Below, in pieces: positions 110 through 19,373 of a stretch of DNA of 19,894 bases. Location of the stretch: NCBI GenBank assembly GCA_019417795.1, contig DXUR01000015.1, positions 1-19,894 of the forward strand, written 5' to 3'. Source of the DNA: Clostridiales bacterium (GTDB lineage Bacteria; Bacillota_A; Clostridia; Oscillospirales; Oscillospiraceae). Every line of letters begins with the position of its first letter. The stretch's first letter is position 1. The notes below the pieces were generated by a model. The model made no database searches, was not told the origin of the DNA, and worked only from the letters and a program-made list of their open reading frames with translations. A program made the position numbers and the translations under genes.

Positions 110-907
110 TCAAAACGCAGCTTTCTCCCATTCAATCAGGATCTCCGCCAGCTCAGGCGTCAGCCGCTTGCGGCACTCCTGCCGCAGTTCCTTCGGCACG
201 CCGTAGAATGCCTCAGCGATGCTGCCGGTGATGGCGGCGAGGGTGTCGCTGTCACCGCCGAGGGACACCGCCGTGCGGAGAGCATCCTCAAAATCTGTGC
301 TTTCCAGAAACGCAGTGATAGCCTGCGGCACGGTCTCCCGACAGCTCTCCACATGATGATAGGTTGGACGGATCTCATCGCAGGTACGGCTGAGATCATA
401 ACCAAACTTGCGCTCCACATGTGCCTTGATCTCCGCCCTACTATGACCGGTACGGGCGAGGAAGATCACCGCAGCAACAGCCTGCGCACCTTTGATGCCT
501 TCCGGATGATCATGCGTCACCTCGGCGGTGAGCCGCGCCAGACGCAGCGTTTCCGCCATGTCCTTCGCCAGCCATGCGGCAGATGACACCCGCATGGCGC
601 TGCCATTGCCGTAGCTCTGGTAGGGCTGCGGGTCGTCCTCATAGAGCCAGTCGCCAAAATGGGTGCCATAGCCCCGGTCGGGGTAGGCACGGCCCAGTTG
701 CTGCATCTCCCGCACCAGTGCTGCTTTGATGGCGGCATCGTCTTGCCCACGGGTGCTGAGTAGGGCCTTTGCCACAGCCAGCGTCATCACCGTATCGTCG
801 GTAAATTCGGAACGCTGGCTGAATAACGGAAAGTCCTTGGCCTTGTAGTTGTTGCAGTCAAACTCGTAGGGGCTGCCCACGATGTCGCCTAAAATCGCTC
901 CGTACAT
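110..907 (-). CDS. ADP-ribosylglycohydrolase (DraG/ARH family)
   Basis: This cytoplasmic hydrolase family removes ADP-ribose from proteins or small molecules using a two-metal centre. The protein has 265 aa. The opening MYGAILGDIVGS is the family's N-terminal G-D motif, TDDT at 36-39 and GGDSDT at 217-222 supply the metal ligands, and the usual all-helical body lies between them, so it looks full length and active. The start at 907 is chosen because it begins exactly at the conserved MYGAILGD and is preceded by GGGAGATGATAAA; a longer reading upstream adds only unrelated residues. It starts 4 bases after the VWA gene stop and is the last gene of the minus-strand run, just before the terminator at 21-58. 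The actual substrate cannot be read from the sequence; the macro-domain gene in the same run points to ADP-ribose chemistry. Confidence 0.92.
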   Translation of the reverse strand: MYGAILGDIVGSPYEFDCNNYKAKDFPLFSQRSEFTDDTVMTLAVAKALLSTRGQDDAAIKAALVREMQQLGRAYPDRGYGTHFGDWLYEDDPQPYQSYGNGSAMRVSSAAWLAKDMAETLRLARLTAEVTHDHPEGIKGAQAVAAVIFLARTGHSRAEIKAHVERKFGYDLSRTCDEIRPTYHHVESCRETVPQAITAFLESTDFEDALRTAVSLGGDSDTLAAITGSIAEAFYGVPKELRQECRKRLTPELAEILIEWEKAAF

Positions 908-911
908 TTTA

Positions 912-1547
912 TCATCTCCCACGTCTTTGCACGTCTTCGTCGATACGGCGCTTCCAGTCGGCGCTAAGCGGCCGGGCGGCGCGGACGCTGCACACCGCCT
1001 CACTGATAACCTCGTAATTCAGCGCCGTGCCCGCCTCGTCGCACTTGTAGTTCACTGCACAATCAGCGCCGATACCGAAGCGTGCCGCCTCCTTGACTGC
1101 GTCGATGTTTGCGCCGAGGAACAGGAATTCCCAGCCGTATCTCTCCTTCTGCCGTTCAATCATACGGCGCACTCGCTCGTAATCGTAGCGGCGGCTGGCG
1201 TTTTCGTAGCCGTCGGTGGTGATGATGAACATCGTCTTCTCTGGCACGTCCTCCCGGCGGGCGTACTTGTGGATGTTGCCGATGTGGTGGATGGCGCCGC
1301 CCACGGCATCCAGCAGCGCCGTGCAGCCGCGGGTGAAATACTCCTTTTCCGTCAGGGGCGGCACCTCGCTCAGCGGCAGGCGGTCATGGATGACCGTGCT
1401 GTCGTTGGCGAAAAGCACCGTGGAGACCAGCGTCTCGCCTGCCTCCCTCTTTTGCTGTGCAAGCATGGAGTTGAAGCCGCCGATGGTGTCCGATTCCAGC
1501 CCCGACATGGAGCCGCTGCGGTCAAGAATAAAAACCAGTTCTGTCAT
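912..1547 (-). CDS. VWA-domain protein with intact MIDAS (TerY-like)
   Basis: This is a 211-aa protein that is almost entirely one von Willebrand factor A domain. The metal-ion-dependent adhesion site is complete: DRSGS at 9-13, a Thr near 76 in CTALLDA, and TDGYEN at 111-116. There is no signal peptide or membrane segment, so it is probably a cytosolic metal-dependent protein-interaction module. The start at 1547 is preceded by GGAGGG with good spacing and begins right at the domain. It resembles the stand-alone VWA proteins of TerY type. Its stop lies 4 bases before the ADP-ribosylglycohydrolase start, indicating co-translation. A partner protein is expected but not identified. Confidence 0.9.
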   Translation of the reverse strand: MTELVFILDRSGSMSGLESDTIGGFNSMLAQQKREAGETLVSTVLFANDSTVIHDRLPLSEVPPLTEKEYFTRGCTALLDAVGGAIHHIGNIHKYARREDVPEKTMFIITTDGYENASRRYDYERVRRMIERQKERYGWEFLFLGANIDAVKEAARFGIGADCAVNYKCDEAGTALNYEVISEAVCSVRAARPLSADWKRRIDEDVQRRGR

Positions 1548-2028: not shown

Positions 2029-2964
2029 TTACAATTCAGCCAGAACATACTCTTTCAGCACATCTCGCATTTTCACAACGAGGTCAATGGATTTATTCAT
2101 AAGCTCCGGATAGTTTTCATGATTTTTGAAATCCAATCCCTTGATATATGTGCAAATCAGAGAGGATTTTTTGTTGTCCAGCCTCTCCCATGACAGCGCC
2201 ATTCCCATCGCCGCTTCTATTTCTGTCTTGTGCTGCTTCATATAGTCAAAGCGTTCCTTGTTGTCAGCAATCCACAGCCCAACTCTTATCTTATGCTCTT
2301 TGTTGACCAAGTCGATTGAAATTTGACATTCCGATGAACCAACTGCAACAGAATACCAATGATCCGTGGTCGCTTTACGCTTGTTAAAAGGCTTGCCGCG
2401 CTGCTCAAGAATATCGTTGAACTGCGTCCAAAACTCCAATCTGCAGCCCTGAGACTCGTTCATCCCCTTATCCTGTGAAATGCGTTTCACAATTTTTGCA
2501 AAATCGTTGGGTTGCTCAATAATCTTAAATTGCGGTGCAGGCTCTGAATCGCCTATCTTGTAGGCATGGATCTCTATCAAGAAAAAGGAAATGCTATCAT
2601 CTGTGTGTTTGTTGAGCCACTCGATGGCGCTTGCGTGTTCATCACGCGCGGCAGCAACTACCCACACAACAACAGAAGCGTCAAGACCGGATGCATAGGT
2701 CAATATTTTCCCTAAGTGGTCATGGTTGGTCTGTTCAAGCTGATTTTCAATGAGCACGACTTTCCCTGTGATCTCATCTCTGCATAGAATATCGCAACGA
2801 TAACTACCAACAAGCCTTTCTGTTTCAATATCCGTTAGCGACAAGTTAAGTACATTTCCAAGCTCTTGAATGTTCTCTTCCGCAGCAAGCCACTTTGAAA
2901 AATCATATTGTTCATGCGGCCAGACTTTTCTTATATCGACCTCGTGCAGTTTTCCGAGTTTCAT
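2029..2964 (-). CDS. DUF4268 protein with PD-(D/E)XK-like N-terminal domain
   Basis: The protein has 311 aa. The N-terminal part (about 20-140) reads like a restriction-endonuclease fold: Asp58 in SYRCDIL, then VVLIENQLEQT with Glu73 and Gln75, giving a D...ExQ variant of the PD-(D/E)XK core. The C-terminal half (about 160-305) matches the DUF4268 type found beside such cores. Proteins of this build are often annotated as putative nucleases in defence or repair settings. The start at 2964 has GGGAGG upstream and yields the typical N-terminus. It follows the macro-domain gene by 22 bases, so the two are probably co-transcribed. Its function is unproven. The Gln in place of Lys occurs in other superfamily members and does not by itself suggest inactivation. 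Confidence 0.85.
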   Translation of the reverse strand: MKLGKLHEVDIRKVWPHEQYDFSKWLAAEENIQELGNVLNLSLTDIETERLVGSYRCDILCRDEITGKVVLIENQLEQTNHDHLGKILTYASGLDASVVVWVVAAARDEHASAIEWLNKHTDDSISFFLIEIHAYKIGDSEPAPQFKIIEQPNDFAKIVKRISQDKGMNESQGCRLEFWTQFNDILEQRGKPFNKRKATTDHWYSVAVGSSECQISIDLVNKEHKIRVGLWIADNKERFDYMKQHKTEIEAAMGMALSWERLDNKKSSLICTYIKGLDFKNHENYPELMNKSIDLVVKMRDVLKEYVLAEL

Positions 2965-2986
2965 TTTTCTTTTCCTCCCTTCACGT

Positions 2987-3979
2987 CTATGCTCCCAACA
3001 AACTCTGATCAAAGGCGAACAGCGCCTCGTTGATCTCGAAGATGTCGTACTTCTTCTGCCTGATGAAATACTCAATAATGACGTCGAACTTGCTGCTGGC
3101 GCTGAGAGCGTAGCCCGCGCGGGCGATGAGGTCACGGGTCTCCGGCAGGCTCAGCTCAAGCGCGATGGCGAAGGCCACCGCCGTGGGCTTGGATGGCTTG
3201 TAGTCCGGGTTGTTGCGGATTTTCGAGAACAGCTTGCGGTCTACGTTGGCTTTCTTATATATCTCGGAATCCTTTTTGCCGCTTCGGTCGATGAGCTTCA
3301 ACAGGGTTTCCGAGAAACCGGCGTCCAGATGTGCCAGCAGACTGTCCAAGCCGTCGGCAGACATAGGCGCTGCCGCTGCACCGGCAGACAACGCTCGACC
3401 TTCGAGAACGCTCATCCGGCGCATCCGCTCCCGGCGGGAGTCGGTGTGGACATCCACATAGTGGTCGTCGATGTAGGCAGCGATGTCCGCGAAGAGCTTA
3501 TTGCCAATCGCATACGCCGCGCGGCTGAAAATGACAAGATACACCGTCATGTCGTTTTCCGCGAGAAATTCGCTGATGGTGTCCACCGCCACGCGGAGCG
3601 CCTGATCCTTGGGATAGCCAAAAACGCCGGAGGAGATCAGCGGGAAGGCAACCGTCTCACAGCCGTGCTTCTTCGCCAGCGCAAGGCTTGAGCGATAGCA
3701 GGAGGCGAGTTGTTCCCGCTCGCCGTACTTACCGCCGTTCCACACGGGGCCGACTGTGTGGATCACATATTTGCACGGCAGGCGGTACGCGCCGGTGAGC
3801 TTGGCCTCGCCGGTCCGGCAGCCGCCCAGCGTCCGGCACTCTTGGAGCAGCTCCGGTCCCGCCGCGCGGTGGATGCAGCCATCCACGCCGCCTCCGCCCA
3901 GCAGCGTTTCGTTCGCCGCATTGACGATAGCGTCCACCTTCATTTTTGTAATATCATTGCGAACAATTTCAAGAGGCAT
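2987..3979 (-). CDS. Macro-domain ADP-ribose hydrolase/binder with HTH-like C-terminal domain
   Basis: This 330-aa two-domain protein has a macro domain at residues 1-175. It shows the ADP-ribose-binding signatures [15 protein letters not shown] (20-34) and ISSGVFGYP (115-123), typical of MacroD/YmdB-type enzymes that remove mono-ADP-ribose or hydrolyse O-acetyl-ADP-ribose. After a low-complexity linker (about 180-210, Arg- then Ala-rich) comes a 120-residue helical domain (210-330). It contains a segment resembling an XRE-like helix-turn-helix ([19 protein letters not shown]) and a conserved-looking tail. The start at 3979 is preceded by GAGGG and begins at the domain. It lies 31 bases after the small Cys-rich gene and 22 before the DUF4268 gene. 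The C-terminal domain could bind nucleic acid or be an interaction module; this is inference. Confidence 0.92.
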
Positions 3980-4010
3980 GGTTCTATCCCTCAATTTCTA
4001 TCATTCAAAA

Positions 4011-4476: not shown

Positions 4477-4877
4477 TTATTTGGACGCAAACCACCTTGC
4501 GGCACTTGTTGTTCCTTCGCAGAAAACCTTCCCGCTTTCACGCAATTCTCTCATCAAAACGCGGATTTGGTTTCGATCAAGCCCCGGCAAAACTTGCTGC
4601 AATTCTTTGAACGGAGTACCGACTTCGTTGTTCTGCCGAATGTGCTTTAACAGCAGTTCCTTGTTGGTATCTCGATCCAGGCCGACATACCTTGTATACA
4701 CGCCAGTTTTCCCGTTGCTGCATAGAGACTTCTGTCAAGAACATACTTCTTGCGACCGATATGCTCGACAATGCCCATCTCGATCAGCCGGTTCAAACGG
4801 GACTGCATCTTCTCGTTCAGCGGTCTTTTGTTTCGTTGCAATCTGATTGGTGAGCATTCATCCTTTGTCCACGGCAC
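4477..4877 (-). pseudogene. Frameshifted C-terminus of an AlbA/Schlafen-type ATP-binding protein
   Basis: Two overlapping minus-strand frames make one family C-terminus. The first (from about 4877) gives LNRLIEMGIVEHIGRKKYV and then SLYAATGK, a winged-helix segment. The second (to the stop at 4477) gives VYTRYVGLDRDTNKELLLK, then GTPFKELQQVLPGLDRNQ and ends ARWFASK. The join is at about 4705-4715, where GGAAAACTGGCGTG would need one more A (GGA AAA ACT GGC GTG) to continue in frame. A single-base loss in an A-run is therefore the simplest explanation. The AlbA_2 ATP-binding N-terminal domain is missing altogether. This type of protein often accompanies type I RM loci. It is a remnant of a neighbouring accessory gene. 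Confidence 0.72.
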
Positions 4878-5109
4878 TGTCGAGACCTACTTGCAATTCT
4901 TTCGCGTCTTGAGCTGGTATAGCGGCATAATCTGAATAATCATATATTTTGCATTTATCGGCATCGGTTTGACTCCATACATCATCAAAGAAGTCATCAA
5001 TTAGCATTGGAGACTCAACACTCGGAATTATATGGTGACTTTTTCCAACAGAATTGACAGAGGTGCCAAGAGACCACACGCGAGTTTTATTGAGCTGGTA
5101 TTTAATCAT
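4858..5109 (-). CDS. Hypothetical 83-aa protein, last gene of the RM operon
   Basis: I do not recognise this protein. It starts MIKYQLNKTRVW and has an acidic middle (MLIDDFFDDVWSQTDADK). The ATG at 5107-5109 overlaps the TAA of the preceding ASCH gene (5102-5104), the overlap type used for coupled translation; no clear ribosome binding site is present. A Met four codons upstream is an alternative. Its 3' end overlaps the AlbA-type remnant by 20 bases in another frame, so its C-terminus (roughly after residue 75) may be read-through into foreign sequence. It could be a truncated relic of a longer protein. Existence as a gene is moderately likely; function unknown. Confidence 0.5.
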   Translation of the reverse strand: MIKYQLNKTRVWSLGTSVNSVGKSHHIIPSVESPMLIDDFFDDVWSQTDADKCKIYDYSDYAAIPAQDAKELQVGLDSAVDKG

Positions 5110-5476
5110 CCAAATACACAAACGATTGAGGAGCTGATTGAATATTAAAGTCCGCTAAAGATTTTGAAGTCTCATACCTTTTAAATGAGCCAAGGGCAAA
5201 AGCATATGCAGTCGTGCATCCACTAAAGTACTCTCTATACTTCAATCTGCTAATACCAGCATTTGCCTTTGTACTGTTCCAGAGCGGCGTAGGTTTCATC
5301 TTGATCGTTTTTACAACTTCAACCTCGCCAATAACCGCTTGTTCTGGAGCAGAGGAATACACAACAATCTTTGATACCTCTTTTTTAGGAATACGTTTTC
5401 GGTACTCATAGTGTTTCTGCCCGTCAAATATTTTATTGGCATATTCTGGTTTGATAGATAGTAGAATCGTGGCCAT
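5102..5476 (-). CDS. ASCH-domain protein (PUA-like fold)
   Basis: This is a 124-aa single-domain protein. The opening ATILLSIKPEYANKIFDG followed by K-x-x-E-x-R gives the ASCH signature GxKxxExR at 19-26. Later strands include VVYSSAPEQAVIGEVEV and the C-terminal half seen in this family. ASCH domains share the PUA/EVE fold and are predicted to bind RNA or modified bases; some relatives hydrolyse modified nucleosides. The gene starts 3 bases after the stop of the PIN-GNAT-ASCH gene and overlaps the next ORF, so it is part of the same transcript. Having a free ASCH protein beside one fused to a PIN domain suggests the two act on the same kind of nucleic acid. The substrate is unknown. Confidence 0.88.
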   Translation of the reverse strand: MATILLSIKPEYANKIFDGQKHYEYRKRIPKKEVSKIVVYSSAPEQAVIGEVEVVKTIKMKPTPLWNSTKANAGISRLKYREYFSGCTTAYAFALGSFKRYETSKSLADFNIQSAPQSFVYLDD

Positions 5477-5479
5477 GCC

Positions 5480-7003
5480 TCATTGCCTTTCAAAGTGTAT
5501 TTTTGTTTGCGATTTGGCTAAAATCGTGTCAAAATCTGCGTCAGAAATATGATCAAATGGTCTTGGTCCGCTATATTGTGGTATGATTCCACTACTCCAT
5601 AATTCGCCTAAAGTAATTCGTTTTGTAAGGCTTTTTATAAAGATGAATTTAACAACCAGAAGTTTTTCACTGTGCTTTTCCCAAAGCTGATTTAGCGTTT
5701 CGGGGCTAAAGACTGTCCGGTTTTCACAGTATTTGAGGTAATCCTCTTTGCTTGAAAAGTTATATCGCACTTCATCAACAACACAAATCGTACTGACAAC
5801 AGATTCATACGCTTTTCTTCTTGGCGTTATCCCCTTCCGGTAAATAACAAGCAAGTCGCCCGGACGCATATCCCGTTTATATGAGAGAGAAATATACACT
5901 TTTTGCAGTGCATAGCGATGAGCTTTGTCTCCCAGATAATCAAAGTTTCCTTCGGTTCTCAATTGCGAGTCTGGAAATAACGGAGTATGGTATTGTGCTT
6001 CAATCGGAAGAAAGAATTTCTGCACATCGTATCTGATATTGGGAAAATTCTCTTTAACCGATTTTGATTTATCATAACCGGCCATTTTCTTAACGAGCAC
6101 AACTTCTTCACCGTTGTCATTTCTCTTAATGCCATATTCATAGAACCCCCATCGAACCAGCAAATCATATAGCGTCCTTAATTCGGGACGGTTCATATAT
6201 AGTGTAACATATATCTCCTCCACATTGCGTTCAATGGCATTGTCAAAAATAATCTTGATGAATCGTTCACCAAGCCTAAAGCCAGAAGCTTCAACCTTGA
6301 ATGTCCCAACTTTTAATCTTCGCTTAGGTCGAAAAATTGGCGCAATGTCACTGTAATTTTCCTCTTCTGTTTCAGTTTTGAGATATAGAAATCCAAGTAT
6401 TGCGCCTGTGTCCGTTCGACATACATAGGCTTCTTCATTGCTCTTTCTTATAAACCAATTCTCGAATCCCGTATATGCTTCACGGAAAGTAGCAAAAAAC
6501 GGGTCTGCCACATCAATATTACCAAACAGCTCCTTTTTGACTGCAAGTACCTTATAGTCTATAAGATCAGGATTTTCATTGGTACATTTTTCAATGAACG
6601 AGTTGATTGTAAATACACGCTCTGACAGCCCTAATCTATCTGCTTTTAAGCGCATACGACGGTCTTCTGTGATTAGAATATCTGCCCTTTTGCAATACAA
6701 TTCGCATAGAAGTTGATTGTCAATTTGATCGTTGGCTGTTTTAGGTGTGTCACTGAGCAGTGCGGTAAATTCCGCCGTCTGCGGCGCAATGCATCGCATC
6801 TCTGTATAAGCATCAATTTTTGCATCATACAGCGATTGCATTTGTGGGTTGCGATATTTACGAAGTTCAGCTATAGAGTATGGATGAATCAGCTTTTCAT
6901 AGTGCAGTTTGTCGAGCCAGTAGAATAGTTTCCCGATAGTAAAGCTTGTCGCTTTAGTATTTTCTCTATGTATAATGACATTCGTATCGAGTAGCGCTCG
7001 CAT
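5480..7003 (-). CDS. PIN nuclease-GNAT acetyltransferase-ASCH/EVE-like fusion protein
   Basis: This 507-aa protein reads as three domains. Residues 1-140 form a PIN-like RNase domain: Asp6 in ALLDTNVII, Glu46 in YSIAELRKY, Asp92/Asp95 in NDQIDNQLL and Asp114 in DILITEDRRM, i.e. the expected acidic metal-binding set. Residues about 155-310 look like a GNAT acetyltransferase: GAILGFLYLKT, then the acetyl-CoA loop region GFRLGERFIK and YDLLVRWGFYEYG. Residues about 365-490 resemble a PUA-like ASCH/EVE domain, with QKVYISLSYKRDMRPGDLL. The start ATG follows the kinase stop with no gap (TAAATG) and has a GGGGGG stretch 7 bases upstream. Likely a cytoplasmic RNA-acting effector, possibly directed at tRNA; this is inference from the domains. 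The gene is visibly AT-richer than hsdR. Confidence 0.85.
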   Translation of the reverse strand: MRALLDTNVIIHRENTKATSFTIGKLFYWLDKLHYEKLIHPYSIAELRKYRNPQMQSLYDAKIDAYTEMRCIAPQTAEFTALLSDTPKTANDQIDNQLLCELYCKRADILITEDRRMRLKADRLGLSERVFTINSFIEKCTNENPDLIDYKVLAVKKELFGNIDVADPFFATFREAYTGFENWFIRKSNEEAYVCRTDTGAILGFLYLKTETEEENYSDIAPIFRPKRRLKVGTFKVEASGFRLGERFIKIIFDNAIERNVEEIYVTLYMNRPELRTLYDLLVRWGFYEYGIKRNDNGEEVVLVKKMAGYDKSKSVKENFPNIRYDVQKFFLPIEAQYHTPLFPDSQLRTEGNFDYLGDKAHRYALQKVYISLSYKRDMRPGDLLVIYRKGITPRRKAYESVVSTICVVDEVRYNFSSKEDYLKYCENRTVFSPETLNQLWEKHSEKLLVVKFIFIKSLTKRITLGELWSSGIIPQYSGPRPFDHISDADFDTILAKSQTKIHFERQ

Positions 7004-7543
7004 TTACTCACCCCCCAGGACATATTCTCTAACTTGCTGCACATCGGAATCGTCAAATAACATCTGATGGATGTAAAGTGGGAGACCTAATTGCTTTGTA
7101 ATCTTTTCACATTGCATCTTTTCACTTTGTTTTAGGGATTTCAATGCATCAAGTGGATAGCAACAGGAATCTCTATACCGAAGATTTTCACAAACTTTAG
7201 TCACATCTGATTCAAGTAAAACCACTTTCGCAATTGGCATTAACGAAAAAACAGACTCAGGCAGCCTTTCAACATTAAATGATTTATCAAAAATGCAGAA
7301 GTGACCCGCTAATATAAATGTCTTATCCTTCTGTAGCCTTTCATTCACCGCCGTAACCAGAATATCCTGATTTTTTTCCTTGTTCACTACAGTTTTGTTA
7401 CGACCATAAATTTCTCCATTGATTGCGCTTATCAAGTCACCAGCTGAATAGCAGGGGATTCCAATGGAGATACTAAGTCTTTCACACAAGGTGCTTTTTC
7501 CCACGCCATAGATTCCCGCAACAAAAATTATGCCATCTTTCAT
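7004..7543 (-). CDS. P-loop kinase-like ATP-binding protein
   Basis: A 179-aa protein with an N-terminal Walker A motif, GIYGVGKST (10-18), in a nucleotide-kinase-like setting. A strand ending FILAGHFCIF (about 95-105) resembles the Walker-B-like region of small AAA_17/adenylate-kinase-type proteins, and a basic region follows near YRDSCCYP. No additional domain is present. Members of this broad group phosphorylate nucleotides, nucleosides or RNA ends, or act as regulatory NTPases; which one applies here cannot be told. Its start has AAGGGGGATAAC upstream and lies 35 bases after the hsdR stop. Its stop abuts the next start, so it is translationally coupled to the PIN-GNAT-ASCH gene and probably works with it. 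Confidence 0.82.
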   Translation of the reverse strand: MKDGIIFVAGIYGVGKSTLCERLSISIGIPCYSAGDLISAINGEIYGRNKTVVNKEKNQDILVTAVNERLQKDKTFILAGHFCIFDKSFNVERLPESVFSLMPIAKVVLLESDVTKVCENLRYRDSCCYPLDALKSLKQSEKMQCEKITKQLGLPLYIHQMLFDDSDVQQVREYVLGGE

Positions 7544-7578: not shown

Positions 7579-10545
7579 TTAGCCCATCCTCATCTCCCGA
7601 TACACTACATCGGCCAATGCGCTCATAATGGCATTGTACTTGTGCTGATCCTCAAAGAGCGAGGTATAGGTATCCTGCGATTCCAGATAGCTGTCCTGGG
7701 CCGCTGCACCGAAGGCCTTAGGGAAAATGCTTTCCACAAAAATCTGCGGATCTGAGGTCTGCGCCATCTTGGTCAGCTTCTTGTCGGCCATCAGACGGCT
7801 GCGCAGAGCCGTCAGCAGCACTTTGTCTCCCTCGGTGAATTCACCCTTGTACTTTTCGTTGATCTTGGCGATGATCTCATCCAGCGGCGACTTTGTGTCC
7901 AGTCCCATTGCACCCTTTTGCTTGGCCGGTTCGTACACGCCCTTCACCTGTTCCAGCTCAATGCTTCCGGCGAAGGTCTTTTGCAGCTTGTAGTATTCCA
8001 GCTTCAACTTACCCTCAAGGTCAACCATATCCGTGGTTTCCGCAGGCAGCAAATTAATCAGATAACAACAGAACGCATATTCCTTATGCAGCTCCTTATC
8101 GAACATCCGCAGGATCTGGGAAATATAGCCATACCACTTAATGAGATTGCGCACCTGACGGCGGAACTGATACCGCTCGTTGGGCGTTTTTTGATTATAA
8201 CGGTCTGCCACCGGCTTCAACACACTGGTCATTCGCCCCATCGCCCGGGCATCCTGCCGGCCTGTGCTGAAATACTCCTTGGCAAAAGCCTCAATATCTG
8301 CATCGTTATAGACCGCAAATCCCCGCAGCTCTTTCTGCGTCTGATAGATCAGGTCAGCGTTGACCTCCTGCGAAAGCGAGGTTTCTTGATAGAACGGCTG
8401 AAACGCCTCCAAAATGTCCTCTTTCTTGTTGGCAAAATCGAGAACGAAAGTGTCCACCTTGCCGGTGCAGGTGCGATTCAATCTGGACAGCGTCTGCACC
8501 GCCTTGACACCCTTCAGCTTCTTGTCCACGATCATCGTGTGCAGCAGCGGCTCGTCAAAGCCAGTTTGGTACTTCTCGGCAACGATCAGCACATTGAAAT
8601 GGTCGTGGAACTCCGCCTTGGTCTGCGTTTCGGCGATGTGCGTTCCATCCGCACGAACATTCAGCTTCGGCTCGGTATACTCTTCATCACCGTCCTGCAC
8701 AGCACCCGAAAAGGCCACCAGCACCTGCACATCGTTGTACTTCTGCTCCTCTATGTAGCGCTTGACCTCGTGGTAGTAGCGCACTGCCGCAAGGCGGGAC
8801 GAGGTAATGACCATCATTTTACCCCTGCCGCCGATCTTGTTTCGGGTGGTTTCCCGGAAGGTCTCCACGATGATCTGTGCCTTTTGGGAGATGTTATACG
8901 GATGCAGCTCCTGATATTTGCGGATCACCTTAGCCGCACGGCTGGCGGGCACATCCGGGTTATCTTCGGAGGTTTTGACGATTTTGAAGCAGGTGTCATA
9001 GGTCATATAGTTCTGGAGCACATCCAGAATAAAGCCTTCCTCAATGGCCTGCCGCATGCTGTAAATGTGGAACGGATGAAAGCTGCCGTCCTCATATTCC
9101 GTTCCGAACAATTCCAGCGTCTTGTCCTTGGGCGTTGCGGTAAAGGCAAAGAAGGACAGATTCTTATGCCGCCCCTGAACGGTCATTTCCCGCATCAGAC
9201 GGTCGTCCGGGTCCAGCTCTTCTTCGGCCTTACCTTCGATCTCAGCGTATTCCCGCAGAGCGTCCTCGGTATCTGCAAGGGCGGCTTTCAGTTTCAGAGC
9301 CGAGCTGCCGGTCTGGGAGGAATGAGCCTCGTCTACGATAATCGCAAAGTTCCGTCCCACTACTTTATCCACTTCCTGATAGATGACCGGGAACTTCTGC
9401 AAGGTGGTGACGATAATGCGCACGCCGCCGTTGATGGCGTCCCGCAGGTCCTTGGAGGTCTTATCTTCCCCGATGGTCTCAATGGCGCCGAGGGTGTGGT
9501 CAAATCCGGAAATGGTCTCCTGCAGCTGCGCATCCAGCACGGTGCGGTCGGTAACGACGACCACGCTGGAGAACACCGGCTTGTTTTCCTCATTGAACAG
9601 CGAGGCCAGCCGGTAAGCCGTCCACGCAATGGAGTTGGACTTGCCGCTTCCGGCGCTGTGCTGGATCAGGTAATTATGCCCCGCTCCGTTCTGCCTGACA
9701 TCGGCCAGCAGCTTGCGCACCACATCCAGCTGATGATAGCGCGGAAAAATCAGCGTTTTGCCGTCCTTCAGGTTCATAAACTTCTGGACAATGTCCATCA
9801 TACTGTCCTTCTGAAAGACATTCTCCCACAGATACGCTGTCGGGTAACCGTTTGGGTTTGCCGGATTGCCCTTGCCGCCGTCGTTTCCGGCTCCGTTGGA
9901 GCCCTGGTTAAAGGGCAGGAAATAGGTGTTCTTTCCGGCGAGCTTTGTGGTCATCCACACCTCGGTGTGATCCACACAAAAATAGGCCAGAATACGCTTG
10001 TTGAATTGGAAGCAAAGCTCCCGCGGGTCGCGGTCATACATCCACTGCCGCTTGGCATCATCCACCGTTTGTCCGGTGTACTGGTTTTTTAATTCAAAAG
10101 CGAATACCGGGATGCCGTTGAGCACCAGCACCATATCCACGCTCTTTTTTGTATCGGCGGAGAAGTACCACTGGCGATAGCACTCGATGGTGTTTGCCGC
10201 CCACTGGGCAGCCGCCGCCTGATTCAAGGCAGACTCCGGCTTAAAATAGCACACCCGAAAACGCAGTCCACGGTGCTTGAAGCCGTGGCGCAGGACAGAG
10301 AGCAGCCCCTCCGTCTCGCAGGCGGTGTTGAACGCCGTGCAGAATTTCCGCACCGGGTCCACCTGATTGGCGTTTTCAAATCGCGCCCACTCCTTGGGCT
10401 GGGTACGCTGGACAAAGTCGATCAGGGTATTTACATAGAGCCCCTGTTTGGCGTCATAGGTGTCTGCACCCTTGGTATATCCGCCCGCCGGGGAGAGAAA
10501 GAAGGATTCTATATCCGCTTCAAAACGCTTTTCGGTGGTGATCAT
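7579..10545 (-). CDS. hsdR: Type I restriction enzyme R subunit
   Basis: This motor/nuclease subunit of the type I RM complex has 988 aa, the normal length. An N-terminal PD-(D/E)XK nuclease core is visible: Asp137 in SVDMVLVL, then [11 protein letters not shown] with Glu151 and Lys153. The translocase follows, with Walker A HSAGSGKS (296-303), DEAH at 405-408 in [12 protein letters not shown], and motif [17 protein letters not shown]-terminal helical region that binds the methylase follows. All catalytic residues are present. The start has AAGGGG 8 bases upstream. It is 22 bases downstream of the 72-aa ORF and 35 bases upstream of the kinase-like gene, so RM and accessory genes share one transcript. 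The long plus-strand reading frame opposite is a codon-bias mirror, not a gene. Confidence 0.97.
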
Positions 10546-10567: not shown

Positions 10568-10786
10568 TTATCCTCTGTTGTGCTTGTTGAAATACGCAGC
10601 GATAACTGCACAAAACTCTGCCGTTGCCTGCTGCTGATAGGCAGGCTCAATTTTGTCGCAGCCGTCCAGAAAATCAGACAGTGCCTTCGCTGTGTCCTGT
10701 ACCTGCTTGACCTGTGAAAAATGGTGCTGCATTTGCGCCTGCTGCTGAATATAGTCATAGTTCCAAATGTTGTAGAATGGATTCAT
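10568..10786 (-). CDS. 72-aa helical ORF between hsdS and hsdR
   Basis: Begins MNPFYNIWNYDYIQQQAQ; then a Gln-rich helical stretch and DTAKALSDFLDGCDKIEPAY. Ends in KHNRG. The ATG directly follows the hsdS stop (TAAATG) and an AGGAGG lies 7 bases before it inside the end of hsdS, so it is translated efficiently and coupled. It is too short for a known RM subunit. By position it may be an accessory protein that modulates HsdR or HsdS assembly, or an antirestriction-type factor. I recognise no domain, so that role is speculation. Confidence 0.78.
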   Translation of the reverse strand: MNPFYNIWNYDYIQQQAQMQHHFSQVKQVQDTAKALSDFLDGCDKIEPAYQQQATAEFCAVIAAYFNKHNRG

Positions 10787-12061
10787 TTATACGACCTCCT
10801 TCTTGCCCGTCACATACTCATAAATCAGAGATTTCTTGTAGTTTTCGATTTCGGTGAGGTATTGCTGTTTCTTGGCAATCAAAGCATCAATGTCTGCGCA
10901 TTTCGTATTTAAATACTCGGCAATTTCAAGCTGCTCGGACTTTTGAACTACGACTGGAACAAACAAATCTCGTATTCGCTCAACATTCAAATTTAATTGT
11001 GTACTTTTAATCGCTGTGCGTACGAATTCTGGTTTCATCGCTTTGAAGATATAGTATAGATACTCATCATTGATATCTGCATTTGGAATAAATCCGACTA
11101 CACTATCAGGGAAAAAAGCGTCAAATCCAAGAATGGCTGCATCTCCAACATTAGCGGCAATCGTCATTGTGAGAGTTCCTTTGGGAAAACACTTGCTAAC
11201 ACTTTTTCCAAGTCCGTTTAGCGTCTGGCTATACGACTCAATGTATTTTTGAGCGCCTGCAACATCTCCAGTTTGGATAAAGGGATATTCACCACCGTAA
11301 TACCTCTCATCATTTCTTGGCCGGTGGTTAAATATTCCTCTTGAGATAGAAGTAACATACTTAACTTTCTTGCAGTCCCATTCTTTCGGAATGTCCCCAA
11401 TCCATTCAATGCCGCTGTTCTTCATCGGCCTGTCGCCACGGATGCCCTTGGTGACAGCCTGCGTAATGACCGCCTGTTTCAGCTTTTTGTATTCTTCAAT
11501 GGACGCGCGGGTCTTTTCCAATACAGCGTCGATTTCGGCGCACTCTGCATCCAAAAAGGCCGCAATGCGCTCCTGCTCCGGTACTGAGGGTGCAAGAATC
11601 TTTAACCATTTGACACCGTCCCAATTTAGTCCCTGCCTTACGCCTGCACCCATACCATAAAAGCCTTTTGCAATGTCAAAAGAGTGCAGGTAGTAGTACA
11701 AGTATTTAGGGCAGAAATTGCTGCGATTTCTTATTGTCAAATACGCTGAAGTAATAATACCTCGTTCTTCTGCAAGGCCGACCCTTAAACTTGTATGGTC
11801 GTTTTGGAGATCTGTGAGCCTTAAAACGATGTCGTCTTTTTCAATAATGTTATATCCATCAAAGCTTTCCGGCAACAGTCCCTCAACCGTGTCAATGCTC
11901 TTTCGCTTCACTTTACCATAGCTTAGTGAAAGCAAATTTTTCTCCTGCAACCCAGTATTTTTGCATTTCACTTGCAGGAAAATCTGAGCAATAGTGTTCA
12001 TTTTCCACGCCCGTGGCATTGCTCCAATCCAAGCAATCCCGCTGTCTTTCATTTCACGCAT
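10787..12061 (-). CDS. hsdS: Type I RM specificity subunit
   Basis: A 424-aa DNA-recognition subunit with the classic two-half design. The first half begins MKDSGIAWIGAMP, with TRD1 at about 20-155 and the conserved helical spacer PEQERIAAFLDAECAEIDAV (161-180). The second half begins MKNSGIEWIGDIP, with TRD2 at about 225-370 and a second spacer (372-418) containing SEQLEIAEYLNTKCADIDAL. The TRDs, especially TRD2, are AT-richer than the spacers, as expected for exchangeable recognition domains. The start at 12061 has AAGGAGGG 11 bases upstream and lies 6 bases after the hsdM stop. Another ATG three codons later is less well spaced. Target sequence cannot be read from the protein. Confidence 0.96.
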   Translation of the reverse strand: MREMKDSGIAWIGAMPRAWKMNTIAQIFLQVKCKNTGLQEKNLLSLSYGKVKRKSIDTVEGLLPESFDGYNIIEKDDIVLRLTDLQNDHTSLRVGLAEERGIITSAYLTIRNRSNFCPKYLYYYLHSFDIAKGFYGMGAGVRQGLNWDGVKWLKILAPSVPEQERIAAFLDAECAEIDAVLEKTRASIEEYKKLKQAVITQAVTKGIRGDRPMKNSGIEWIGDIPKEWDCKKVKYVTSISRGIFNHRPRNDERYYGGEYPFIQTGDVAGAQKYIESYSQTLNGLGKSVSKCFPKGTLTMTIAANVGDAAILGFDAFFPDSVVGFIPNADINDEYLYYIFKAMKPEFVRTAIKSTQLNLNVERIRDLFVPVVVQKSEQLEIAEYLNTKCADIDALIAKKQQYLTEIENYKKSLIYEYVTGKKEVV

Positions 12062-12067
12062 CTGCCG

Positions 12068-13825
12068 TCAGCCCTCCTTATGGAACAGTGTGTTCAGGCT
12101 GTCGGCAATTTCACGCTCCAGCTTTTGAATCCGCTCCACAATGTCGTCCACCGGCTCCGGTGGCTGATACTCGTAGAAATAGCGGGTCATCGGAATTTCA
12201 TAGCCCACCTTGGTCTTGCTCTTGTCGATCCACGCATCCGGGGCGTAGGGCAGGACTTCCCGTGCAAAATAAGCGTCAATATCCTGCACCAGCGGTACAT
12301 TTTCGGTGTCCCGCAGGGCAGTGTCCGCCACCGGCTTGCCCCGCTTCATCACGATCTCGCCGTTTTCGTCCCGCTGCGGACGCTCCACCACAATTTTGTT
12401 GTAGCCGAACTCCTCACTGCCGAAAATCTTGCTCTCGCAATACATGCCAGATTTATCCCCAAACACAGCATTGTTCCGGTATTCGCCGTAGGCCTGCACA
12501 ATCAGTTCCCGGCAATGGTCGCTGATGTCGTTGCGCTTGGTGCCGATGGCTTTGCGGCGCTGTTCATAGCAGTGGGACGCGTCAATGAGCTGCACCTTGC
12601 CGCAGCGGTAGGCGGGCTTGTCCTTGCACAGCACCCAGATATAGGTGGAGATGCCGGTGTTCATAAACTGGTCGGTGGAAAGCTGAACAATGGCGTCCAG
12701 CCAATCGTTTTCCAAGATATACTGGCGGATGTTGCTGGGGCCGCTCCCGGCATCACCGGCAAACAGAGGCGAGCCGTTCTGAATGATCGCCATTTTGCCT
12801 CCCGGCGCCAGCTTGGACAGACCGTTGAGCACAAAAAGCTGCTGTCCGTCGCTGATTTTCGGCAGACCGGGCGCAAATCGCCCCAGCTCGCCCTTGGCAG
12901 CTTCGGTCTCCACCGCCTTCTGTTCCCGCTTCCAGTCGATGCCGAAGGGCGGATTGGAAATGCAGTACCGGAAGGTGAAGCCCGGGAACTGATCGTCGGA
13001 GAGCGTATCACCGAACCGCATATTATTGGGGTCGCCGCCACGGATCATCATATCCGCCTTTGCAATGGCGAAGGTGGAGGGGTTGAACTCCTGTCCGAAG
13101 CAAGTCACCTCCACATCGCTGTTCAGCTCGTGGATGCGCTCCTCCATACAGGAAAGCATCTGTGAGGTGCCCATCGTCATGTCGTACACGGTCACATTGC
13201 CGTCATCCAGCTTGGCATCGCACAGCAGCAGGTCGGTCATCAGATAGATGATGTCCCGACTGGTGAAGTGCGCTCCGGCCTCCTCGCCAAAGGACTCGGA
13301 GAAACGCTTGACGAGATCCTCAAAGATATAGCCGCAGTCCACGGCGCTGATCTTATCCGGGCCGAGGTAGCCTTTGGGGGAGTTGAACTCCTTGATGACC
13401 AGATACAGGCTGTTGCACTCCACCATACGGCGGATGATGTTGTCAAAATCGAACTTGGTCAGCACATCCTGCACATTGCCGGAGAACCCGGCCAGATAGT
13501 CCCGGAAATTTGCTTCAATGTTGTCCGGATCGGCCAGCAGGCTCTCAAAAGTGAAGCGGCTGGTGTTATAGAACTGATAGCCGGAAGCACGGGTCAGAAA
13601 ACCGTCGATAACCGCCAGCTTCTTAACCTTTTCATATTGCTCGATCACCGCATCGTGGGTGGGCAGCAGGCAGTCGTGAAACCGCTTGACCACCGTCATC
13701 GGCAGGATCACAAGGCCATATTCGTGGGGCTTGAACGGCCCGCGAAGCACATCCGCCACATTCCAGATCATCGTGGCCTTTTCCTGTATATTTACGCCCA
13801 CGGCGCTGCTTTTTTCATTAACCAT
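12068..13825 (-). CDS. hsdM: Type I RM methyltransferase subunit (N6-adenine)
   Basis: This 585-aa methylase partners HsdS to methylate adenine in the target, and both with HsdR to restrict. An N-terminal helical domain (about 15-150) precedes the SAM-binding core: motif I is DMTMGTSQML (215-224), motif IV is NPPF (291-294) in ISNPPFGIDW, and the fold signature HFTSRDII is at about 186-193. The motif I variant with Met and Thr is known in this branch. GGAGGAAAAGCA precedes the ATG at 13825. The gene sits 74 bases downstream of the XRE regulator and 6 bases before hsdS. No good independent promoter is obvious in the 74-base gap, so it is probably read from the XRE promoter. Confidence 0.97.
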   Translation of the reverse strand: MVNEKSSAVGVNIQEKATMIWNVADVLRGPFKPHEYGLVILPMTVVKRFHDCLLPTHDAVIEQYEKVKKLAVIDGFLTRASGYQFYNTSRFTFESLLADPDNIEANFRDYLAGFSGNVQDVLTKFDFDNIIRRMVECNSLYLVIKEFNSPKGYLGPDKISAVDCGYIFEDLVKRFSESFGEEAGAHFTSRDIIYLMTDLLLCDAKLDDGNVTVYDMTMGTSQMLSCMEERIHELNSDVEVTCFGQEFNPSTFAIAKADMMIRGGDPNNMRFGDTLSDDQFPGFTFRYCISNPPFGIDWKREQKAVETEAAKGELGRFAPGLPKISDGQQLFVLNGLSKLAPGGKMAIIQNGSPLFAGDAGSGPSNIRQYILENDWLDAIVQLSTDQFMNTGISTYIWVLCKDKPAYRCGKVQLIDASHCYEQRRKAIGTKRNDISDHCRELIVQAYGEYRNNAVFGDKSGMYCESKIFGSEEFGYNKIVVERPQRDENGEIVMKRGKPVADTALRDTENVPLVQDIDAYFAREVLPYAPDAWIDKSKTKVGYEIPMTRYFYEYQPPEPVDDIVERIQKLEREIADSLNTLFHKEG

Positions 13826-15708: not shown

Positions 15709-16401
15709 ATGAATCAGAAAATTACCCTATATCATGGCTCTGAACAGATCATCGAATCTCCAACCTTTGGGTTGGGTAAGCAGAACAATGACTTCGGGCT
15801 GGGCTTCTACTGCACGGAAAGCGAGGAACTCGCTAAAGAATGGGCTGTATCCTCTCTGCGTAACGGCTTCGTCAATCGTTACAGTCTTGATACGGAATAC
15901 ATGAAAATTCTGAATCTGAACAATCCAGACTATACGATTCTGAACTGGATTGCTGTTCTGGTAGCGCATCGTCTGTTTTCTATCAAAAGCCCAGCCGCAC
16001 AGCGGGCAAAACGATATTTGATCGACAATTTCGGCGTCAACGTCAATGCCTACGACCTGATTATCGGATACCGTGCCGATGACTCCTATTTTGACTTTGC
16101 TGCGTCTTTCCTAAATAACGGAATTTCCGTACAGCAACTCGCAAACGCTATGCGACTTGGCAAGTTAGGCGAACAGATCGTCATCAAGTCTAAATACGCC
16201 TTTTCGCTGCTGCATTACGATGGATTTTCTATTGCAGAAAAGGAAAAATATTATGTCCGCCGCAAGGCTCGAAATGATGAAGCCGACCAACTTTATTCGG
16301 ATATACTTGAAGAGGAAACAGATGGTCTGTATATCCTTGATATCATAAGAGGAGGCATCCAAAACGATGACCCACGCATACCAAGAAATCTATCTGAGTA
16401 A
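15709..16401 (+). CDS. DUF3990 ADP-ribosyltransferase-like toxin
   Basis: A 230-aa protein of the DUF3990 type, a branch of the ART superfamily that would transfer ADP-ribose from NAD+ to a target. The fold's landmarks are visible: ITLYHGSEQ with Tyr8-His9-Gly10, FGLGFYCTE with Tyr34, the conserved YRADDSYFDF (121-130) after DLIIGY, and LGEQIVIKS (153-161) where the catalytic Glu/Gln motif sits. AGGAGG lies 8 bases before the ATG. Related DUF3990 genes commonly pair with a short downstream partner. Here the last 35 bases overlap an HTH gene, implying coupled synthesis as in toxin-antitoxin pairs. Target unknown. Activity as a toxin is inferred from family and arrangement. Confidence 0.82.
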   Translation: MNQKITLYHGSEQIIESPTFGLGKQNNDFGLGFYCTESEELAKEWAVSSLRNGFVNRYSLDTEYMKILNLNNPDYTILNWIAVLVAHRLFSIKSPAAQRAKRYLIDNFGVNVNAYDLIIGYRADDSYFDFAASFLNNGISVQQLANAMRLGKLGEQIVIKSKYAFSLLHYDGFSIAEKEKYYVRRKARNDEADQLYSDILEEETDGLYILDIIRGGIQNDDPRIPRNLSE

Positions 16402-17005
16402 CGCACAGGCATTACTGGGCGATGCTTTTGATTATGCTATCAACGCGTGTGGAGTTGCCGGAGATAGCTTCATAAAGCTGTTTTCCGTCAGTTCCGTCAG
16501 TAATCGGATTGAGAATGGTGAACCTTCATATCTTTTGGGGAAAAGCGGGATTGAAACTGCTGTTGATGTTCTCGTTGAGACTACGGGCAAAGCGCCGACC
16601 GCCAAGCCTCAAGCGAATTTCAGCCGTTCCAGAGAGTATTGGATCGGCTGGGCAGTCGCCTACTACCAATGGTTTTCCGGAAGAAAATTCAGTGATATTT
16701 TTAAGGTTCTTTCGTTTGAAGATTTGCAGCAGATGTATTCCCCCCTTCATGAAGCGGATGTCACTAAATTCGCTGATATTGTCGATACTAAAGTGCGCGA
16801 ATACTTCGCTGATACCAACCTCAAACGCATCCGCACGCTTTATGGCTGCACGCAGGCAGAGCTTGCCAAGCGAAGCAATGTCAGTCTTCGCTCAATTCAA
16901 ATGTACGAACAGCGCAACAAGGACATTAACAAAGCCAGTGCGGAGACTGTTCTTAGCCTTGCAAAAGTCCTCGGCTGTACGATGGAGGATCTTCTGGAAA
17001 CGTAA
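16367..17005 (+). CDS. HTH antitoxin-like partner of the DUF3990 protein
   Basis: A 212-aa protein. The C-terminal part (152-211) is a clear XRE helix-turn-helix: RIRTLYGCTQAELAKRSNVS, then LRSIQMYEQRNKDINKAS and TVLSLAKVLGCTMEDLL. The N-terminal 150 residues are not a known DNA-binding fold; two helical segments (FDYAINACGVAGDSFIKLFS and YWIGWAVAYYQWFSGRKFSD) may hold or neutralise the toxin, taking the place of the small DUF3791 partner often found after DUF3990 genes. The ATG at 16367 lies inside the toxin gene with GAGGAGG 11 bases upstream. It probably binds the TATCAC/GTGATA operator at 15659-15693 and represses the pair. Confidence 0.85.
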   Translation: MTHAYQEIYLSNAQALLGDAFDYAINACGVAGDSFIKLFSVSSVSNRIENGEPSYLLGKSGIETAVDVLVETTGKAPTAKPQANFSRSREYWIGWAVAYYQWFSGRKFSDIFKVLSFEDLQQMYSPLHEADVTKFADIVDTKVREYFADTNLKRIRTLYGCTQAELAKRSNVSLRSIQMYEQRNKDINKASAETVLSLAKVLGCTMEDLLET

Positions 17006-18011: not shown

Positions 18012-19373
18012 ATGATAAAGGAACTCTCAATTTCTGGCTTTCGTGGCTTTGGGCAAACCCAGACGGTCAAGTTTTCAATCCCTGACCAAGAGCACATTGG
18101 TAGTGGGTTGACAATTATTACAGGTGCAAATAACGCAGGAAAAACTACGATTATTGAGTCTATCCGTGCGTTCAACGGTTCTGATTCACCTTCTTTTTCA
18201 GAAGGAAGACGAAACCATTTGACCGATGGAAAAATAACTTTAACACTAACGGATGAAGAATCGAAGACATATTCTATTACCTCAGTTGCAGGAGGTGGCA
18301 GTTCAACTCAAAAGAGTGAAAAATTCGACTTGCAATCTTATGTTTTGCCCTCCAGACGAGCGATTCCTTTTGATTTCGGAAAGGGATCTTGGAATAGAGA
18401 AACCTATATTTCATACGCACATAAATTAGAGGCACAGCGCAGTTCGTCTTTAGGCAATTTTGAATCCAGAATCTTTCAAATTGAACGTGAAAAAGCTGAA
18501 TTTGATACTGTGCTTGCCAAAATTCTCGGAAGCGATTTTCGCTGGGCTATTGAACAACGCGACAACGGACAGTATTATATTAAATTCACAAAAGACGGCG
18601 TATCACACAGCAGTGAAGGTGTCGGAGACGGGATTTGGAGTATCTTTACCATATGTGCATCCCTATTCGATGCTCCAGAAAAAAGTGTTGTGGTTATTGA
18701 CGAGCCTGAACTATCTGTACATCCTGCTTTACAAAAACGCCTAATGGCACTTTTCCTTGAGTATAGCAAAACACATCAAATTATCGTGTGCACACATTCG
18801 CCATACTTTGTAAATTGGGAGGCTATAGTCAACGGTGCTAATTTAATTCGTGTTGTGAAGGAAGGAACTGTTTCAAAGTGTTATTTGATTTCGGATGAGT
18901 GCAGACATTCTTTTGGTGGTATACTTCGTGATTTGAACAATCCTCATACGCTCGGCATAGAAGCTAATGAAGCCTTTTTTCTTGAGGACGGCATCATTTT
19001 AGTGGAAGGTCAAGAAGATGTCGTAGTCTTCAACAAAATGGCTCAGGAACTCAATATGACTTTAAAGGGAAACTTCTTTGGTTGGGGCGTCGGTGGTGCA
19101 TCCAAAATGAAAGCTTTCTTGATATTGTTTAAAGATTTAGGATACAAGAAAATTGTTGCAGTTCTTGATGGTGATAAGGCTGCTGATGCCGAGAAATTAA
19201 GAGCGGAATTTTCTGAGTATAAAATTATTACTCTAAAAGAAGATGATATCAGAGATAAAAAAGCAAGAGAAATACAAGCAAAATCCGGTATCGCTGACGA
19301 AAAAGGCAACTACAAGGAAGAACACAAAGAATACACTATCGGTTTGATAAACGAAATCAATTCCGTATTGTAA
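18012..19373 (+). CDS. OLD-family ATPase/TOPRIM endonuclease
   Basis: A 453-aa protein with an ABC-type ATPase split around a variable insert, then a TOPRIM nuclease domain. Visible: N-terminal ISGFRGF, Walker A GANNAGKT (38-45), signature-like SEGVGDGIWS (201-210), Walker B VVVIDEPELSVHP (226-238), the switch His in CTHSPYF (260-266), and TOPRIM ILVEGQEDVVVF (329-340) plus VLDGDKAAD (384-392) holding Glu332, Asp386 and Asp388. OLD nucleases cut DNA in anti-phage defence, either alone (class 1) or with a helicase (class 2, Gabija). No UvrD-like partner follows, so it looks like the solitary class. GGAGG precedes the ATG at 18012; an earlier in-frame ATG at 17937 lies in the leader. It sits between the tRNA-Pro fragment and the integrase, a typical cargo slot. 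Confidence 0.9.
   Translation: MIKELSISGFRGFGQTQTVKFSIPDQEHIGSGLTIITGANNAGKTTIIESIRAFNGSDSPSFSEGRRNHLTDGKITLTLTDEESKTYSITSVAGGGSSTQKSEKFDLQSYVLPSRRAIPFDFGKGSWNRETYISYAHKLEAQRSSSLGNFESRIFQIEREKAEFDTVLAKILGSDFRWAIEQRDNGQYYIKFTKDGVSHSSEGVGDGIWSIFTICASLFDAPEKSVVVIDEPELSVHPALQKRLMALFLEYSKTHQIIVCTHSPYFVNWEAIVNGANLIRVVKEGTVSKCYLISDECRHSFGGILRDLNNPHTLGIEANEAFFLEDGIILVEGQEDVVVFNKMAQELNMTLKGNFFGWGVGGASKMKAFLILFKDLGYKKIVAVLDGDKAADAEKLRAEFSEYKIITLKEDDIRDKKAREIQAKSGIADEKGNYKEEHKEYTIGLINEINSVL

What the first reader, a model, noticed from the sequence alone, without database searches (positions are those of the whole stretch)
4858..7543. RNA-targeting-looking module fused to the tail of a type I RM operon
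Directly seen: after hsdR, on the same strand with gaps of 35, 0, 3 and -8 bases, come a P-loop kinase-like protein, a PIN-GNAT-ASCH fusion, a stand-alone ASCH protein and an 83-aa ORF. Known: PrrC and RloC anticodon nucleases are guarded by, and encoded with, type I RM enzymes and fire when restriction is disabled; PIN domains are RNases, ASCH/PUA-like folds bind RNA, and GNAT toxins acetylate charged tRNA. Inference: this may be a similar back-up or abortive-infection system with a different chemistry, switched on by RM inhibition or phage damage.
Basis: partly seen in the sequence, partly recalled or inferred. Interest (0 to 1): 0.82.

Follow-up and report, generated by a model that had tools for sequence, protein, structure and literature searches.

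The report
Putative toxin module behind restriction operon
Right behind a bacterial DNA-restriction operon sits a real, conserved three-gene set (a kinase, a PIN-acetyltransferase-EVE protein and its ASCH partner) that belongs to a defence-like family already described from genome comparisons, and that most likely works as a toxin with its own brake.

Summary
In detail: on the minus strand hsdM, hsdS, a 72-aa ORF and hsdR are followed, with the stated gaps, by an AAA_17 kinase, a PIN-GNAT-EVE protein (third domain EVE, not ASCH), an ASCH protein and an 83-aa ORF. The family is not new: PADLOC lists the pair as PDC-M11, Bell et al. 2020 described PIN-GNAT-EVE + ASCH + AAA_17 beside type I RM, and a phage record names PIN-less relatives GevT toxin / GevA antitoxin. 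Added here: a same-strand ASCH gene in 131 of 135 loci; natural effector-ASCH fusions; a dedicated kinase subfamily (5 of 5 hits beside the effector); invariant PIN acids; co-directional linkage also to type III RM and inside an hsdM-hsdS operon. But most copies are not RM-linked: an RM gene was found within 1.5 kb in 7 of 34 PIN-bearing and 3 of 101 PIN-less loci. Best reading: a self-contained toxin/antitoxin-like abortive module, repeatedly hitched to RM operons. A PrrC-like guard role is possible, not shown. No biochemistry was tested.

The parts
12068..13825 (-). hsdM, type I methyltransferase subunit (585 aa)
   Evidence: N6_Mtase 1.7e-49, HsdM_N 2.4e-20
10787..12061 (-). hsdS, specificity subunit (424 aa)
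   Evidence: Methylase_S 3.2e-23, two stretches; part of it strongly diverged from L055
10568..10786 (-). 72-aa ORF between hsdS and hsdR, function unknown
   Evidence: intact in L055, 98.6% nt identity; no family above cut-off
7579..10545 (-). hsdR, type I restriction/translocase subunit (988 aa)
   Evidence: SWI2_SNF2 6.2e-25, HSDR_N 5.2e-11
7004..7543 (-). AAA_17 P-loop kinase (179 aa), adenylate-kinase fold; dedicated partner subfamily
5480..7003 (-). PIN-GNAT-EVE protein (507 aa), proposed effector/toxin; PDC-M11A
   Evidence: PDC-M11A 1.7e-192
6569..7003 (-). PIN domain (about residues 1-145) with conserved D6, E46, D95, D114
   Evidence: PIN_4 over cut-off in homologues P0028 and P0106
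6074..6556 (-). GNAT domain (about residues 150-310)
5495..6031 (-). EVE domain (about residues 325-503)
   Evidence: EVE over cut-off in homologue P0084, below it here; boundaries approximate
5102..5476 (-). stand-alone ASCH protein (124 aa), proposed antitoxin/regulator; PDC-M11B, related to GevA and ZmASCH
   Evidence: ASCH 1.9e-5; PDC-M11B 6.8e-45; same PHROG as GevA, phrog_3136; ZmASCH 2.7e-11
4858..5109 (-). 83-aa ORF, status uncertain (87 aa from TTG at 5121)
   Evidence: conserved in L055; weak VPA1262_N_dom match 1.8e-5, below cut-off

Best explanation
A self-contained toxin-antitoxin-like, probably abortive defence module of the (PIN-)GNAT-EVE / ASCH family (PADLOC PDC-M11), here hitched to the tail of a type I RM operon. 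The PIN-GNAT-EVE protein is the effector: EVE binds RNA or a modified base, GNAT acetylates and PIN cuts, most likely an RNA such as tRNA, so that translation stops. The ASCH protein, made from the neighbouring and usually overlapping gene, holds it in check, by direct binding or by competing for the RNA. The adenylate-kinase-like protein is a dedicated but optional third part, perhaps a nucleotide-sensing switch. Shown: anatomy, conservation, partner strictness, natural fusions, purifying selection. Inferred: toxicity, substrate, ASCH as antitoxin (so named in one phage record), trigger, and any functional link to RM.
For: Same-strand ASCH neighbour within 2 kb in 131 of 135 loci; 121 overlap the effector frame when the longest mechanical ORF is taken. 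Effector and ASCH are fused in P0065, P0091 and P0106. The PhiR47_2 record names the GNAT-EVE gene GevT toxin and its ASCH neighbour GevA antitoxin; GevA and the window ASCH share phrog_3136, GevT and the window effector phrog_6345. In alphaproteobacterial plasmids the partner is an HTH-ASCH protein whose HTH matches HigA antitoxins (6.5e-7), in a tight HTH-ASCH / PIN-GNAT-EVE / kinase order. PIN acids conserved. The solved relative ZmASCH binds nucleic acid and weakly cuts ssRNA (PMC5615036, abstract and passages). Kinase subfamily beside the effector in 5 of 5 hits. dN/dS 0.07-0.125.
Against: No toxicity, neutralisation, RNA cleavage or acetylation was tested, and no paper behind the names GevT/GevA turned up. 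L064 has no ASCH neighbour in view. ASCH could be a second RNA-active part, not a brake, since ZmASCH is itself a weak RNase. No kinase was seen within 2 kb in 90 of 135 loci (some are cut by contig ends). In the window's kinase clade a conserved Asp is Ala.
Confidence: 0.6

Rival explanations
1. RM guard: the module is held inactive by the RM complex and fires when restriction is disabled, like PrrC/RloC but with RNase plus acetyltransferase chemistry.
For: Co-directional RM linkage in 6 PIN-bearing loci and in none of the PIN-less ones: behind hsdR (window); behind type III mod-res (L056); 23 bases behind a type III mod (L057); between hsdM and hsdS (L095); before hsdMSR (L086); before an N6-methyltransferase gene (L060). 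Bell et al. 2020 report ASCH fused to HsdS in Methanohalophilus.
Against: In 27 of 34 PIN-bearing loci no RM gene was found in the DNA held, up to 8 kb (12 seed proteins, several loci cut short). Plasmid triplets mostly stand without RM. Among Bacillota genome loci plus the window alone the frequencies do not differ much: 4 of 10 PIN-bearing and 3 of 19 PIN-less. No physical or regulatory link was shown.
Confidence: 0.2
2. Counter-toxin: PIN-GNAT-EVE removes the products of phage GNAT-EVE toxins, as Bell et al. 2020 suggested.
For: In viral contigs a PIN-based scan gave 6 relatives and a GNAT-EVE-based scan 161; the patterns differ, so this is only a rough comparison, but it agrees with Bell et al. 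One Rhizobium plasmid carries both kinds in tandem (L180).
Against: PIN-bearing proteins keep the whole GNAT-EVE part and their own ASCH partner, which a mere decoy would not need.
Confidence: 0.1
3. Nucleic-acid marking: GNAT acetylates a base as a self mark or helper of RM (Iyer et al. 2013, known to me only through Bell et al.).
For: EVE and ASCH belong to a superfamily that binds modified bases (Bell et al.); an acetyltransferase fold is predicted.
Against: Mostly found without RM genes nearby, and the PIN domain points to RNA.
Confidence: 0.1

Closest known systems
PADLOC candidate system PDC-M11 (A and B)
   Same: Both proteins match over nearly their whole length (1.7e-192 and 6.8e-45).
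   Different: The kinase is not matched by a PDC-M11 model; its only PADLOC match is a weak VakA hit (1.6e-4).
PIN-GNAT-EVE / ASCH / AAA_17 operons of Bell et al. 2020 (PMC7641849; passages read; figures and supplements not seen)
   Same: Same domains, same partners, same type I RM neighbourhood.
   Different: [quoted passage not shown] here also type III RM tails, an hsdM-module-hsdS operon, three RM-neighbouring PIN-less copies and natural effector-ASCH fusions.
GevT/GevA of Escherichia phage PhiR47_2 (PV340567)
   Same: GNAT-EVE plus overlapping ASCH; 35.2% identity over residues 154-462 of the window protein.
   Different: No PIN domain, no kinase of this subfamily in the 8.9 kb read; beside cI of a prophage.
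ZmASCH (PDB 5guq/5gus; PMC5615036, abstract and passages read)
   Different: The K53 equivalent is Q46 here and variable in the family.
PrrC / RloC anticodon nucleases (recalled; no call compared them directly)
   Same: Encoded with type I RM; suspected RNA effector.
   Different: No ABC-type ATPase match in the module; different catalytic domains.

Membership tests
PDC-M11 (PADLOC) | PDC-M11A protein, full length | tested here: met
   residues 1-504 on 1-498 of 501, E 1.7e-192
PDC-M11 (PADLOC) | adjacent PDC-M11B protein | tested here: met
   E 6.8e-45, 3 bases downstream
PIN-GNAT-EVE operon (Bell et al. 2020) | N-terminal PIN with catalytic acids | tested here: met
   acids conserved; Pfam cut-off passed in homologues, not in the window protein
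PIN-GNAT-EVE operon (Bell et al. 2020) | GNAT domain | tested here: met
   acetyltransferase PHROG 6.4e-22; structure model of fused homologue P0106; no Pfam GNAT match in the window protein
PIN-GNAT-EVE operon (Bell et al. 2020) | C-terminal EVE domain | tested here: met
   over cut-off in homologue P0084; window protein 14.3 of 23 bits
PIN-GNAT-EVE operon (Bell et al. 2020) | ASCH gene and AAA_17 ATPase beside it | tested here: met
   both over Pfam cut-off
PIN-GNAT-EVE operon (Bell et al. 2020) | close to type I RM genes | tested here: met
   hsdR 35 bases upstream of the kinase gene
GevT/GevA pair | PIN-less GNAT-EVE architecture | tested here: not met
   the window protein has a PIN domain; the GevT match starts at window residue 154
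type II toxin-antitoxin system | toxic protein neutralised by the partner protein | not testable with these tools
   needs expression experiments
type II toxin-antitoxin system | two tightly linked genes, partner near-universal | tested here: met
   131 of 135 loci, all 131 on the same strand
PrrC/RloC anticodon nucleases | ABC-type ATPase coupled to the nuclease (recalled) | tested here: not met
   no such match in the kinase, effector, ASCH and 87-aa proteins in Pfam and PADLOC
PrrC/RloC anticodon nucleases | activation when type I RM is disabled (recalled) | not testable with these tools
   experiment needed
ZmASCH-like ASCH proteins | nucleic-acid-binding Tyr47, Lys53, Ser128 | tested here: inconclusive
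   Tyr in 103 of 103 and Ser in 101 of 103 locus sequences; Lys position variable, Gln in the window

The most novel reading that the evidence does not exclude
The (PIN-)GNAT-EVE / ASCH module is a plug-in back-up effector for restriction systems of unrelated types (I and III). It uses two chemistries in one protein, cutting and acetylating RNA, with an RNA-binding ASCH protein as its brake and a dedicated adenylate-kinase-like protein as its sensor. It would be an RM guard unrelated to PrrC and RloC.
Probability: 0.2. Interest if true: 0.82.

Novelty: new member of a known kind. Interest (0 to 1): 0.45.

Why it matters
The family is widespread: matches lie in the window's phylum, in Proteobacteria, Actinomycetota and haloarchaea and in many prophages; a GevT-GevA pair at least 99% identical to that of PhiR47_2 lies in 274 of 5426 complete E. 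coli genomes. Yet my searches found no paper that tests it. The near-strict ASCH partner, the natural fusions and the dedicated kinase make its parts list firm. The recurrent co-directional linkage to type I and type III RM makes the question 'do RM operons carry suicide back-ups beyond PrrC/RloC?' directly testable in laboratory strains.

Tried and rejected
PrrC/RloC membership: rejected, no ABC-type ATPase match in the module. ASCH as an N4-acetylcytidine amidohydrolase of the YqfB kind: considered from memory only, not tested. Promoter and terminator scan: 10 promoter-like sites against 13.3 expected and 12 terminator-like against 10.1, so uninformative; none lies between hsdR and the kinase gene. 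Alignment A4 put the ASCH-only rows on the EVE domain, so I dropped those 23 of 70 rows and used A6 for the model. The model of the fused protein has pTM 0.59, so the docking of ASCH on the effector cannot be read from it. The fold searches with that 639-residue model were filled by the GNAT and ASCH parts; PIN and EVE were barely tested that way. Literature: 'PDC-M11' no paper; 'PIN-GNAT-EVE' one paper, Bell et al., also found; GevT, GevAT and related words only unrelated papers in the listings (one search showed 20 of 57); one search listed 14 papers, judged by title and start of abstract; none. Passages of a 2026 BREX paper (PMC12839542) concern other GNAT proteins. Iyer et al. 2013 is not held. 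bioRxiv and most subscription papers are not in the library. The metagenomic joined proteins P0203, P0297, P0298, P0130, P0244 and P0288 could be real deletions or chimeric contigs; their contigs could not be reached.

Limits of the counts. ORF starts were taken mechanically (longest ORF), so overlaps are upper values; in the window itself the gap is 3 bases. Searches counted L058 as PIN-less; one search moved it to PIN-bearing because its start is cut by a contig end (34 and 101 instead of 33 and 102; the Fisher p went from 0.0021 to 0.0025). L055 was left out as a near-copy of the window. The plasmid loci are 17 of the 33 records matched, chosen because the match reached into the PIN part. 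The viral loci are the best 80 of 161. The profiles were built partly from the loci they then scored.
Full report
What is there. Pfam: AAA_17 2.5e-15 and ASCH 1.9e-5, both over cut-off. PADLOC: PDC-M11A 1.7e-192 and PDC-M11B 6.8e-45. The third domain of the fusion is EVE, not ASCH: in the window protein PIN_4 and EVE stay below Pfam's cut-offs, but they pass in homologues; the GNAT part matches an acetyltransferase PHROG at 6.4e-22.

It is a maintained gene set. Within the operon, divergence between the two loci peaks in hsdS (about 10751-11500) and in the fusion/kinase stretch (about 5750-7250), with less between them; there are further differences in the genes below about 4.3 kb. The changes in the module are mostly synonymous, so this looks like exchange with a diverged allele, not positive selection.

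It is a known kind. Bell et al. 2020 (PMC7641849; passages read) describe PIN-GNAT-EVE proteins with a second ASCH gene and often an AAA_17 ATPase, close to type I RM, predict toxin-antitoxin or defence roles and state that none of the modules had been characterised. They credit an earlier description to Iyer et al. 2013, which is not held. A phage record (PhiR47_2, PV340567) calls the PIN-less homologue GevT toxin and its ASCH neighbour GevA antitoxin; I found no paper on it in the library searched.

Partners. I scanned 136 loci: the window, 29 genome loci from the window's phylum (called Bacillota here), 17 plasmid loci, 3 phage loci and 86 viral-contig loci; L055 was then left out as a near-copy, leaving 135. 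An ASCH gene lies within 2 kb on the same strand in 131 of 135; in 121 it overlaps the effector frame when longest ORFs are taken. Of the four misses, L057 and L166 end at a contig end, L058 has its effector frame split with its ASCH further off, and L064 has no ASCH in view. Three homologues hold effector and ASCH in one chain (P0065, P0091, P0106). A kinase of the same subfamily lies within 2 kb in 45 of 135: 18 of 34 PIN-bearing and 27 of 101 PIN-less loci. A profile of this kinase searched in 398 Bacillota genomes gave 5 hits at E <= 1e-10, all 5 beside the effector gene, the window's own relative G001 being one of them (the tool scored at most 8 candidates per genome). In a search of 398 genomes drawn with the same settings 14 carry the effector at E <= 1e-50. 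Pairwise distances over 45 loci correlate (Spearman 0.82 effector-ASCH, 0.72 effector-kinase, 0.69 kinase-ASCH), a mirror-tree result that does not correct for shared descent of the hosts.

RM linkage. With 12 RM seed proteins, an RM gene was found within 1.5 kb of the module in 7 of 34 PIN-bearing loci, 6 of them co-directional, and in 3 of 101 PIN-less loci, none co-directional (Fisher p 0.0025, but loci are not independent and flanks differ). Much of that contrast comes from prophage loci: among Bacillota genome loci plus the window it is 4 of 10 against 3 of 19, and there the difference lies in the orientation. The PIN-bearing cases: window (hsdMSR, then module); L056 (type III mod, res, 11 bases, effector, ASCH); L057 (type III mod, 23 bases, effector cut by the contig end); L095 (hsdM, effector, ASCH, then an hsdS with five specificity stretches whose longest frame overlaps ASCH by 8 bases); L086 (effector, ASCH, hsdM, hsdS, hsdR in a haloarchaeal plasmid); L060 (an N6-methyltransferase gene 673 bases downstream); L096 (type I RM on the other strand). 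A separate Pfam search for type I genes in the 29 Bacillota genomes put them within 10 kb of the effector in 4 of 29 (G001, G929, G1120, G272), with shorter frames in G514 and G817. By a rough estimate from 37 HsdM_N places in 29 genomes of about 2.7 Mb, chance would give about 1% per locus. So the linkage is real, but in a minority. The main text of Bell et al. has no 'type III' ([quoted passage not shown] L064, L079 and L080 are PIN-less exceptions, all with the RM genes on the opposite strand.

Plasmid copies mostly stand alone. Of 33 plasmid records with a match I read 17, all PIN-bearing: 12 have the kinase, among them tight HTH-ASCH / PIN-GNAT-EVE / kinase orders, and only L086 has type I RM beside it by the seeds. 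The seeds do not see everything: L088 has an annotated DEAD/DEAH helicase just upstream, L181 an annotated restriction endonuclease about 1 kb upstream, and L089 lies near cas genes.

Verdict. Ordinary in that the family and its type I RM linkage were already described; useful in that the partner rule, the fusions, the dedicated kinase and the type III / inside-operon linkage sharpen the hypothesis. I take a toxin-antitoxin-like abortive module as most likely (0.6) and a true RM guard as a minority reading (about 0.2). Toxicity, substrate, trigger and co-transcription remain untested.

Noticed in passing
window 5750-7250 and 10751-11500 against L055: Within the operon, divergence from the O. 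valericigenes locus peaks in the PIN-GNAT-EVE/kinase stretch and in hsdS, with less between.
   Followed up: partly
proteins P0203, P0297, P0298, P0130, P0244, P0288: Metagenomic relatives in which parts of kinase, PIN, HsdS and ASCH are joined in frame with the effector wholly or partly missing: real deletions or chimeric contigs.
   Followed up: no
window 2029-3135 (-): DUF4268 protein that matches the single-gene defence candidate PDC-S11 (1.9e-121).
   Followed up: no
window 110-1003 and 2987-3994 (-): ADP-ribosylglycohydrolase and macro-domain proteins downstream of the module.
   Followed up: no
window 15709-17005 (+): DUF3990 protein followed by an overlapping gene for an HTH protein; looks like a toxin-antitoxin pair.
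   Followed up: no
window 18015-19373 (+) and 19414-19881 (-): AAA ATPase with OLD-like TOPRIM domain beside part of a phage integrase: perhaps a defence island on a mobile element.
   Followed up: no
L180 3255-4866 and 6202-9057: Rhizobium anhuiense plasmid with an effector-ASCH pair of shorter, apparently PIN-less effector and a PIN-bearing triplet in tandem.
   Followed up: no
kinase residue 79 (window 7307-7309): The Asp of the LDGHF motif is Ala in the window, L054 and L059, all PIN-bearing.
   Followed up: partly
L061 11189-12004 and L054 11626-12492: An HNH endonuclease gene (PF14279) lies near the module in two Bacillota loci.
   Followed up: no
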